Positions 13,833 through 16,053 of a DNA stretch of 38,078 nt are shown here, in pieces. Source of the stretch: an uncultured Flavobacteriales bacterium (GTDB lineage: Bacteria; Bacteroidota; Bacteroidia; Flavobacteriales_F; PHOS-HE28). A program made the translations under genes and the position numbers. The stretch covers positions 1-38,078 of the forward strand of contig CALMYC010000017.1 of assembly GCA_937873385.1 (NCBI GenBank), written 5' to 3'. The notes under the pieces were generated by a model. That model did no database searches. It was not told the DNA's origin and saw nothing but the letters and a program-made list of their open reading frames with translations. Position 1 is the stretch's first letter. Every line of letters begins with the position of its first letter.

Positions 13833-14531
13833 TTAGACCCTCTGCCGCACCGTGCGCTGCTCGATCCGCTTCTCATAGTCCTTGCCCTGAAAGATGCGGT
13901 GTACGAAGATGCCCGGTGTATGTACGTGGTCCGGATCGATCTCGCCCGGCTCCACCAGGTGCTCCACTTCCGCAATGGTGATGTTGCCGGCCATGGCCAT
14001 CATGGGGTTGAAGTTGCGTGCGGTGCGTCGGTACACCAGGTTGCCGTTGGTGTCGCCCTTCCAGGCCTTCACCAGGCTGAAATCCGCGCGGAGCCAGCGC
14101 TCCATCACGTACATCTTGCCGTCGAACGCGCGGGTCTCCTTGCCCTCGGCCACCTCGGTTCCGTAGCCTGCGGGCGTGAAGAACGCCGGAATGCCCGCTC
14201 CGCCCGCGCGGCAGCGTTCGGCCAAGGTGCCTTGTGGCGTGAGCTGCACCTCCAGTTCGCCGGAAAGCAGCTGGCGTTCGAATTCGGCGTTCTCGCCCAC
14301 GTAGCTGGCGATCATCGTCTTGATCTGCCGCTTCTTCAGTAAAAGCCCGAGGCCGAAGTCATCCACCCCTGCATTGTTGCTGATGCAGGTAAGGCCTTTC
14401 ACACCCTTGCGCACCAGCGCCGTGATGAGGTTCTCCGGGATGCCGCACAGGCCGAAGCCGCCCACCATCAGGGTCATGCCGTCCTTGAGTCCGTCCAGCG
14501 CCGCATCAGCATCTTTCACTTGCTTGTTCAT
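13833..14531 (-). CDS. scoA: 3-oxoacid CoA-transferase subunit A
   Basis: A 232-residue protein. Residues 24-35 ([12 protein letters not shown]) are the oxyanion and CoA binding glycine motif of the alpha subunit, and [14 protein letters not shown] follows. The full-length A subunit precedes scoB as usual. The first 156 bp have a second, damaged copy at 15898-16053 with identical spacing and high identity over the region coding residues about 18-52. A promoter-like TATCTTCG lies 18 bp upstream of the start on this strand. The upstream region is shared with the divergent fic gene. Confident assignment; the exact 3-oxoacid (acetoacetate or 3-oxoadipate) is not settled by sequence alone. Confidence 0.95.
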
Positions 14532-14557: not shown

Positions 14558-14623
14558 GGGGCGTGGAAATTGTTTGGACGGAAAGTCACTTTGGCGGTAG
14601 CCATCGGACGCGGGACATCCGGT

Positions 14624-14695
14624 TGTATATCCGATGGGTACACTGCATATACACGTTGGGCTCAATATGTATAGATTTGGTCAATTATCTATACA
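14624..14695. promoter_or_regulatory. Cluster of four alternating TGTATA/TATACA half-sites (probable operator of fic/scoAB region)
   Basis: Half-sites lie at 14624-14629 (TGTATA), 14648-14653 (TATACA), 14668-14673 (TGTATA) and 14690-14695 (TATACA), with start-to-start spacings of 24, 20 and 22 bp. The last two extend to a perfect 9-bp inverted repeat, TGTATAGAT-N10-ATCTATACA (14668-14695). The first two give TGTATAT-N16-ATATACA (14624-14653). Spacing of about two helical turns fits a dimeric regulator. The Fic protein just downstream carries a C-terminal winged-helix-like segment, so autoregulation is a natural hypothesis. The sites are AT-rich in an otherwise GC-rich sequence. Confidence 0.65.
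14672..14679 (+). promoter_or_regulatory. Putative -7 box TAGATTTG for fic
   Basis: TAGATTTG is an exact match to TAnnTTTG and overlaps the left arm of the 9-bp inverted repeat, so a protein bound there would block transcription. The predicted start of transcription falls a few bases later, about 20 bp before the fic ATG at 14708. A -33 element is not clear; TTGG at 14656 is only 12 bp away, shorter than usual. Confidence 0.5.
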
Positions 14696-14707
14696 CATTC
14701 GCCGAAC

Positions 14708-15808
14708 ATGGATAGTTCCGACGCAGCTTCTTACCAAGTGCCACATTTGCCGCATGGCCGAAACATGGAGAGCGAAGCCGTTCTGCGGAAATTGGCGGAG
14801 GCGCACCGGTGGCTCGCGGAATTGAAGGGCGTGATATCCTCCATTCCCAACGACGGCATTTTATTGGACACCCTGAGCTTACAGGAGGCCAAGGACAGTT
14901 CGGCCATTGAGAACATCATCACCACCCATGATGAGGTGTACCGCAGCGATGTGCTGGCCGGGCAGTTCACCTCGGCCGCGGCCAAGGAGGTACACCGGTA
15001 TGCAGCAGCCCTGAAACATGGGTTTCAACGGATCCAACGACAAGGTGGCCTCGGTCTGCGGCTGATCATCGAGGTGCAAGCGATCGTTGAGGAAAGCGAT
15101 GCTGGCCTCCGAAAGCTTCCAGGCACCAAATTGAAGAACGACCAAACCGGCGAGGTGGTTTTCGTTCCCCCGCAGCACCATGCGGAGATCACCGCCCTGA
15201 TGCGCAATTTGGAGCAATTTCTCAATGAAGATGGCTTCGTTCAGGCCGACCCCTTGGTGAAGATGGCCGTGGCGCACCACCAGTTCGAGAGCATCCACCC
15301 ATTCTATGATGGCAATGGCCGCACCGGTCGCATCATCAACGTGCTCTATCTGGTGCGTTGCGGTCTGCTGGACCTGCCCGTGCTCTTCCTCAGCCGCTAC
15401 ATCATCCGCAACAAGGCAGACTACTACCGCTTGTTGCGGCAACTACGCACCACCGGTGATTGGGAACCTTGGGTACTGTATATGCTGGAAGGTGTGGCCA
15501 CCACTGCACGGGAGTCGATCGGGTTGATCAAGAGCATGAAGCAGCTGATGCAGCTGACCAAGCATCGGATCCGCAGTGAGCAGCCGCGCATGTACAGCCA
15601 GGACCTCATCAATTCATTGTTCCGGCATCCGTACACCAAGATCGCCTTTATCGAACGTGACCTGCACGTGAGCCGGTTGACAGCGACCAAGTACCTCAAC
15701 AAACTTGTCGCCATGGGCATACTGGCCAAAGTGAAAGTGGGGCGCACGAACTTCTACCTCAATGAGCCGCTTTTCGCCTTGCTAAGGGATGGGGTGAAGC
15801 CACAGTGA
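14708..15808 (+). CDS. Fic family protein AMPylase, class II, with C-terminal winged helix
   Basis: A 366-residue protein. HPFYDGNGRTGR (His197 to Arg208) is the catalytic Fic motif that transfers AMP (or another nucleotide moiety) from ATP to a protein hydroxyl. Residues 64-69 (SSAIEN) match the [S/T]xxxE[G/N] inhibitory motif near the N-terminus, so the enzyme is of the self-inhibited class II type (Fic_N-like domain). Residues about 300-366 (FIERDLHVSRLTATKYLNKL) look like a winged-helix DNA-binding domain. Internal ATG 14765 is a possible alternative start. It stands alone on the plus strand between scoA and a scoA remnant; the upstream operator suggests autoregulation. Targets are unknown. 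Confidence 0.92.
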   Translation: MDSSDAASYQVPHLPHGRNMESEAVLRKLAEAHRWLAELKGVISSIPNDGILLDTLSLQEAKDSSAIENIITTHDEVYRSDVLAGQFTSAAAKEVHRYAAALKHGFQRIQRQGGLGLRLIIEVQAIVEESDAGLRKLPGTKLKNDQTGEVVFVPPQHHAEITALMRNLEQFLNEDGFVQADPLVKMAVAHHQFESIHPFYDGNGRTGRIINVLYLVRCGLLDLPVLFLSRYIIRNKADYYRLLRQLRTTGDWEPWVLYMLEGVATTARESIGLIKSMKQLMQLTKHRIRSEQPRMYSQDLINSLFRHPYTKIAFIERDLHVSRLTATKYLNKLVAMGILAKVKVGRTNFYLNEPLFALLRDGVKPQ

Positions 15809-15888: not shown

Positions 15889-15897
15889 AGTGTGGGT

Positions 15898-16053
15898 GTT
15901 GCTGATGCAGGTAAGGCCTTACACACCCTTGCACACCAGCGCCGCGATGAGGTTCTCCGGGATGCCGCACAGGCCGAAGCCGCCCACCATCAGGGTCATG
16001 CCGTCGCGGATGCCCTTGAGGGCCTCGTCGGCATTGGACACTCGCTTGTCCAA
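15898..16053 (-). pseudogene. Remnant of a second scoA (N-terminal 52 codons, with stop)
   Basis: This 156-bp stretch aligns without gaps to scoA 14376-14531. The ATG position reads TTG, and the residues 18-42 coding region is almost identical ([19 protein letters not shown]). An AAA-to-TAA change creates a stop after ...CKGV, at the position of Lys45 of ScoA, and homology ends abruptly at 15898 before the REP-like palindrome. Divergence is concentrated in the first ~17 codons; the rest has only about three differences. This suggests either recent partial duplication or gene conversion. The rest of the 363-bp gap between fic and nuoN holds the palindrome (15866-15888), a purine-rich repeat (16073-16110) and a small hairpin (16114-16128); I see nothing else in it. 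Confidence 0.85.

What the first reader, a model, noticed from the sequence alone, without database searches (positions are those of the whole stretch)
14624..14695. Operator-like array overlapping the fic promoter
Four TGTATA/TATACA half-sites with near two-turn spacing form two inverted repeats. The second, TGTATAGAT-N10-ATCTATACA, contains the TAGATTTG promoter box of fic. The Fic protein has a C-terminal winged-helix-like segment. Inference: a self-repressing Fic module, possibly also controlling scoAB in the other direction.
Basis: partly seen in the sequence, partly recalled or inferred. Interest (0 to 1): 0.6.

Follow-up and report, generated by a model that had tools for sequence, protein, structure and literature searches.

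The report
SoFic toxin's own DNA operator array
The repeated DNA half-sites just in front of this anti-phage Fic toxin gene belong to a widespread array that the toxin's own DNA-reading helix very probably recognises, because across bacteria the site sequence changes in step with one residue of that helix, and similar arrays occur in phages that show no such toxin gene.

Summary
In detail: four TGTATA/TATACA half-sites lie at 14624-14695; the whole 38-kb window holds only five, and the exact paired patterns occur once each in the 3.5-Mb genome. The gene is a SoFic-type class II Fic (PADLOC SoFic E 1.5e-118) with a C-terminal winged helix. Of 116 orthologues from many phyla, about 84% carry an adjacent array of alternating half-sites about 20.5 bp apart (period 41-42 bp), either upstream or downstream of fic, almost never both. 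Half-site sequence does not follow overall protein distance (r = -0.05) but follows residue 324 at the start of the recognition helix (L/I: TATA; P: TAAA; N: CACA; Q: TTAA; K: GG/CC-containing), the strongest of 287 positions; independent plasmid and viral SoFics fit. Here the array covers the presumed fic promoter, so autorepression is the best reading; control of scoAB is not supported. Two results go beyond autorepression: downstream arrays that face no promoter, and arrays of the same design in phage contigs with no SoFic in the record. They suggest that DNA binding may also restrain the toxin. No binding or repression has been measured.

The parts
14624..14629 (+). half-site 1 TGTATA (outer; off-phase by 2 bp; not kept in L020)
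14648..14653 (-). half-site 2 TATACA
   Evidence: kept in L020
14668..14673 (+). half-site 3 TGTATA (TGCATA in L020)
14690..14695 (-). half-site 4 TATACA
14664..14699 (.). main operator unit, 13-bp arms with 10-bp centre, 12/13 complementary
14672..14679 (+). TAGATTTG, Bacteroidota-type -7 box (TAnnTTTG) inside the operator; inferred fic promoter
   Evidence: sequence; TAGCTTTG in L020; no -33 box seen
14708..15808 (+). fic: SoFic-type class II Fic AMP-transferase, 366 aa
14897..14914 (+). residues 64-69 SSAIEN, inhibitory-helix motif (S/T)xxxE(G/N) of class II Fic
   Evidence: read from translation; SoFic structures matched
15296..15331 (+). residues 197-208 HPFYDGNGRTGR, Fic catalytic motif
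15545..15772 (+). residues 280-355, SoFic-like C-terminal winged helix
   Evidence: PF21248 E 1.2e-24; predicted structure
15671..15712 (+). residues 322-335, start and body of the recognition helix SRLTATKYL...; residue L324 is codon 15677-15679
   Evidence: DSSP of model; co-variation with half-site
13833..14531 (-). scoA, divergent neighbour; not supported as a target
15890..16050 (-). decayed duplicate of the scoA 5' end on the far side of fic, mark of the insertion
   Evidence: 85% identical over 141 bp to the intact 5' end

Best explanation
The array is the operator of SoFic. SoFic dimers bind alternating half-sites (general form CRTGnnnAnnAAA; here aTGTATAGA) with the recognition helix of their C-terminal winged helix, residue 324 choosing the base core. 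The 20-22 bp steps put successive half-sites on one face of the DNA, allowing cooperative binding. Here the bound protein would cover the inferred -7 box and start region of fic and repress it, keeping a toxic AMP-transferase scarce until needed. Shown by sequence: the array, its geometry, its linkage to SoFic, and its co-variation with the helix. Inferred: physical binding, dimer arrangement, repression, and release during phage infection.
For: Array present and beyond chance, unique in the genome. Orthologues: model-free inverted 8-mers at 13-28 bp (about 40 loci versus 14 expected) and direct repeats at exactly 41-42 bp (36 versus 10.6); half-site pairs at f-r 19/20 and r-f 21/22 in 35 of 113 upstream regions versus 0.56 in shuffles; density 1.15 per kb upstream versus 0.07 elsewhere; palindrome centres 20.5-21 bp apart. 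Co-variation: residue 324 has the highest mutual information of 352 positions (1.31 bits), S322 next; largest effect of 287 positions after correcting for protein distance, in every divergence bin; independent pairs on the tree never discordant (few pairs). Out of sample: plasmid SoFics fit the predicted class (L143 and L149 only in part) and viral SoFic L212 (K324) has GGTA sites. In the reverse search 3 of 4 Bacteroidota sites lie at SoFic. A related Fic-HTH protein, CccR, is a proven autorepressor (PMC9755527).
Against: No binding or expression data. In 59-61 of 116 orthologues the array is only downstream of fic, and in 13 of these the next gene is convergent, so promoter repression cannot be the only role. 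18 of 116 show no array by this test. The search for 41/42-bp periods was chosen, and several loci are near-duplicates. The E. coli SoFic array has a 70-bp period and only partly fits the code.
Confidence: 0.7

Rival explanations
1. The array is, at least in part, a DNA antitoxin: binding to it in cis holds SoFic inactive or sequestered, wherever the array sits, and phages carry copies as decoys to keep the toxin off.
For: Arrays lie downstream of fic in about half of the family, also before convergent genes, where a promoter role is unlikely; the C-terminal domain controls EcSofic toxicity (PMC12249575); DNA binding changes CbFic2 activity (PMC10628234); phage contigs carry 3-5 half-site arrays with no SoFic in the whole record, while a scrambled palindrome gives 0 hits.
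Against: In CbFic2 DNA stimulates rather than inhibits. Downstream arrays could act on internal promoters, e.g. of hsdR. Phage records may be fragments, and phage arrays could serve another protein.
Confidence: 0.2
2. The repeats act as transcribed RNA hairpins (type III-like antitoxin RNA).
For: Perfect hairpins could form in downstream arrays; repeat arrays are typical of type III systems.
Against: Arms within a hairpin are no more alike than arms of neighbouring units (mismatches of 13: 3.28 within, 3.43 across, 3.01 direct repeats downstream); both spacings are fixed to about two helical turns; the co-varying protein residue is in a DNA-recognition helix.
Confidence: 0.03
3. The array is a shared operator that also controls scoAB.
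For: It lies between the divergent genes, about 93 bp from the scoA start.
Against: None of the other 29 scoA loci of the genus examined has the motif pair; fic is an insertion next to scoA; other orthologues have other neighbours.
Confidence: 0.06
4. Another DNA-binding protein, not Fic, uses the sites.
For: No binding experiment exists; phage contigs carry arrays without SoFic.
Against: Site sequence follows Fic residue 324 and not overall relatedness; arrays move with fic across phyla.
Confidence: 0.03

Closest known systems
SoFic / Sofic anti-phage Fic proteins (Shewanella 3eqx, 3zcn; E. coli 9vjc; PADLOC SoFic)
   Same: Same three domains Fic_N, Fic, SoFic-like_C; class II inhibitory motif; PADLOC model E 1.5e-118.
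   Different: Below the NCBIfam SoFic equivalog cut-off (377 versus 550 bits). No operator or DNA binding was found described for SoFic in the open papers read: PMC10628234 states DNA binding had not been demonstrated; PMC12249575 treats the C-terminal domain only as a toxicity regulator.
CccR of Yersinia pseudotuberculosis (PMC9755527)
   Same: Fic with C-terminal HTH that binds inverted repeats in its own promoter and represses itself.
   Different: One pair AGATAATCAT-N26-ATGATAATCT; different dimer; not an array of 20.5-bp steps; about 29% identical to SoFic over part of its length, as that paper reports.
CbFic2 of Coxiella burnetii (PMC10628234)
   Same: Class II Fic with winged helix; DNA binding alters enzyme activity.
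   Different: No specific operator known; random DNA was used.
Type III toxin-antitoxin ToxIN and phage pseudo-ToxI (PMC3475682, abstract seen)
   Same: Repeat array next to a toxin, mimicked by phages.
   Different: There the repeats act as RNA; here the evidence points to DNA, and no antitoxin action is shown.

Membership tests
SoFic-type class II Fic | Fic_N + Fic + SoFic-like_C domain order | tested here: met
   Pfam hits all above cut-off
SoFic-type class II Fic | Catalytic HPFx(D/E)GNGRxxR and N-terminal inhibitory (S/T)xxxE(G/N) | tested here: met
   HPFYDGNGRTGR 197-208; SSAIEN 64-69
SoFic-type class II Fic | PADLOC SoFic profile | tested here: met
   E 1.5e-118
SoFic-type class II Fic | NCBIfam SoFic equivalog cut-off | tested here: not met
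   377.2 bits versus 550: a relative, not the same equivalog
SoFic-type class II Fic | AMP transfer and anti-phage activity | not testable with these tools
   no assay
Autorepressing Fic (CccR-like) | Inverted-repeat operator at own promoter | tested here: met
   promoter itself inferred
Autorepressing Fic (CccR-like) | DNA-binding helix specific for those repeats | tested here: inconclusive
   strong co-variation, no binding assay
Autorepressing Fic (CccR-like) | Loss of the protein raises promoter activity | not testable with these tools
   no expression data
Type III (RNA) antitoxin array | Arms of each hairpin co-vary as base pairs | tested here: not met

The most novel reading that the evidence does not exclude
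SoFic is restrained by its own cognate DNA array (a DNA antitoxin as well as an operator), which would explain why the array may sit on either side of the gene, and several phage lineages carry matching arrays as decoys against SoFic.
Probability: 0.2. Interest if true: 0.92.

Novelty: new variant of a known kind. Interest (0 to 1): 0.75.

Why it matters
How SoFic toxicity is kept off is an open question in the papers read, and DNA binding by SoFic had not been shown as of PMC10628234. A family-wide operator array, and a one-residue specificity code that can be tested by helix swaps, make the question directly testable. Arrays of the same design in phages that show no SoFic point to a possible DNA-level counter-defence.

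Tried and rejected
RNA hairpins: arm co-variation test negative. Idea that the AS1 antitoxin ORF of E. coli is itself array DNA: rejected, since in strain SE15 the array is upstream and a 47-codon ORF lies downstream in unrelated sequence (its identity with AS1 is presumed from length and place). scoAB control: rejected. Half-site class as mere phylogeny: rejected (r = -0.05). Sign tests on independent pairs of the tree all point one way but have too few pairs to reach significance. Phage scans for the exact CACA and TTAA palindromes gave nothing. A gene common to the neighbourhoods of the phage arrays was looked for and not found.

Full report
1. The observation. The inner inverted repeat 14664-14699 has 12 of 13 arm positions complementary. 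No shuffle of the 176-bp scoA-fic gap reached that repeat or the alternating-array score (0 of 400 each), one of 400 reached four hexamers, and the rest of the 38-kb window holds a single further TGTATA/TATACA. Exact pairs of either orientation occur once each in the genome, both here. The leftmost half-site is less secure: it is 2 bp off phase and is missing in the nearest relative.

2. The gene. fic (14708-15808) has Fic_N, Fic and SoFic-like_C domains, matches the SoFic structures and the PADLOC SoFic model (E 1.5e-118), but is below the NCBIfam equivalog cut-off. An AlphaFold model (mean pLDDT 84.4) gives helices 298-306, 312-319 and 323-335 and two strands 340-344 and 347-351: a winged helix whose recognition helix starts at 323.

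3. Orthologues. Same-genus orthologues (68-70% identical) carry the same alternating half-sites before the start codon, and more distant ones carry TGTAAAG versions. In 113 orthologues from many phyla inverted 8-mers are enriched at 13-28 bp and direct repeats at exactly 41-42 bp, without any assumed sequence. With the TGTAWAGA half-site, 35 upstream regions have correctly spaced pairs against 0.56 in shuffles. The same scan found arrays immediately after the fic stop codon in many of the remaining loci, and other loci have other half-sites of the same design. Palindrome centres are 20.5 or 21 bp apart in 54 cases.

4. Place of the array. With a sequence-free score, 35 loci have it upstream only, 59 downstream only, 4 in both (two of these have almost no upstream sequence) and 18 in neither. 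Downstream arrays go with an upstream gene within 130 bp (42 of 57 against 10 of 30; p 0.0005), often hsdM/hsdS with hsdR following (these names are read from clusters of size and order, and plasmid records annotate such neighbours as methyltransferase and subunit S). But 13 downstream arrays face a convergent gene. On the tree the side changes only about six times.

5. Who reads it. The half-site core was compared with all protein positions. Residue 324 carries the most information (1.31 bits) and residue 322 is second (0.91 bits). Half-site difference is unrelated to overall protein distance (r = -0.05), yet pairs sharing residue 324 differ by 0.6-1.4 of 5 bases and pairs not sharing it by 2.0-2.9 in every distance bin; 324 has the largest effect of 287 positions. 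The table: L 25 TATA, 2 TAAA; I 17 TATA, 5 TAAA, 2 other; N 15 of 16 CACA; Q 9 of 9 TTA-; P 5 of 5 TAAA; K mostly GG/CC/GC-containing. Twelve plasmid SoFics were read afterwards: of the eleven with a readable helix, all show the predicted class, two only in part (CATA for TATA, TTAG for TTAA), and two of the arrays do not exceed every shuffle. The E. coli protein and two plasmid relatives, with Q324, have TTTAA-type sites in a different, 70-bp design: a partial fit.

6. RNA or DNA. Arms within a potential hairpin are no more alike than arms across neighbouring units, which argues against base-paired RNA as the selected feature.

7. Reverse search and phages. An exact palindrome of the TATA class occurs in 4 of 395 Bacteroidota genomes: three at SoFic (one a fragment) and one beside a tyrosine integrase and a Vsr-like gene. 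In IMG/VR, TATA- and TAAA-class palindromes give 26 loci, 18 of which form arrays of 3-5 half-sites with SoFic spacing. None of the 26 records shows a SoFic by protein or PF21248 search; the control records G700 and G701 do, while one search had no positive control. Some are clear phages: terminase and P22-type portal (L186), RecT and exonuclease (L187), ThyX (L188). A scrambled palindrome gave none. Many of the loci are copies of one another; by eye there are about eight or nine lineages, and in a few copies the array lies inside an open reading frame. The records may be fragments.

8. Mechanism. Best reading: SoFic dimers bind the array and repress fic at this locus. CccR does this with another operator (PMC9755527). 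Whether binding also restrains toxicity is open: the C-terminal domain controls EcSofic toxicity (PMC12249575), and DNA changes CbFic2 activity, though upwards (PMC10628234). The downstream and phage arrays are easiest to understand if DNA binding itself matters to the toxin, but that is inference.

9. scoAB. Among 30 scoA loci of the genus only this one has the motif pair. A decayed scoA 5' copy lies beyond fic (85% over 141 bp), and in four relatives nuoN was seen next to scoA, so fic with its array appears to have been inserted there.

Limits.

Noticed in passing
window 15890-16050: Decayed duplicate of the scoA 5' end on the far side of fic; the start codon is lost. Suggests fic arrived by recombination between nuoN and scoA.
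   Followed up: partly
L186, L187, L188, L190, L191, L194, L198, L203, L207, L208 and copies: Phage contigs with SoFic-type half-site arrays, mostly between genes, and no SoFic found in the whole records.
   Followed up: partly
L046, L052, L066, L067, L071, L091, L104: SoFic sits in type I restriction-modification loci, with the array between fic and a roughly 1075-aa HsdR-like gene.
   Followed up: partly
L139 upstream of fic: E. coli SE15 SoFic has a roughly 300-bp repeat array upstream with a 70-bp period; a 47-codon ORF overlaps the fic stop.
   Followed up: partly
L212 3001-4060: Viral contig that encodes SoFic with K324 and a downstream CATGGGTAGAAAAT...ATTTACCCATA array.
   Followed up: partly
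L182 around 1501: Orphan array unit in a Bacteroidota genome beside a tyrosine integrase and a Vsr-like gene.
   Followed up: no
L020 (G032): Fic fragment (residues 2-61, 88% identical) with three of the four half-sites kept upstream.
   Followed up: partly
window 14597-14608 and 14630-14641: Second inverted repeat GTAGCCATCGGA / TCCGATGGGTAC next to the outer half-site.
   Followed up: no
L186 8515-10791: Terminase large subunit that appears to carry an intein with a LAGLIDADG domain.
   Followed up: no
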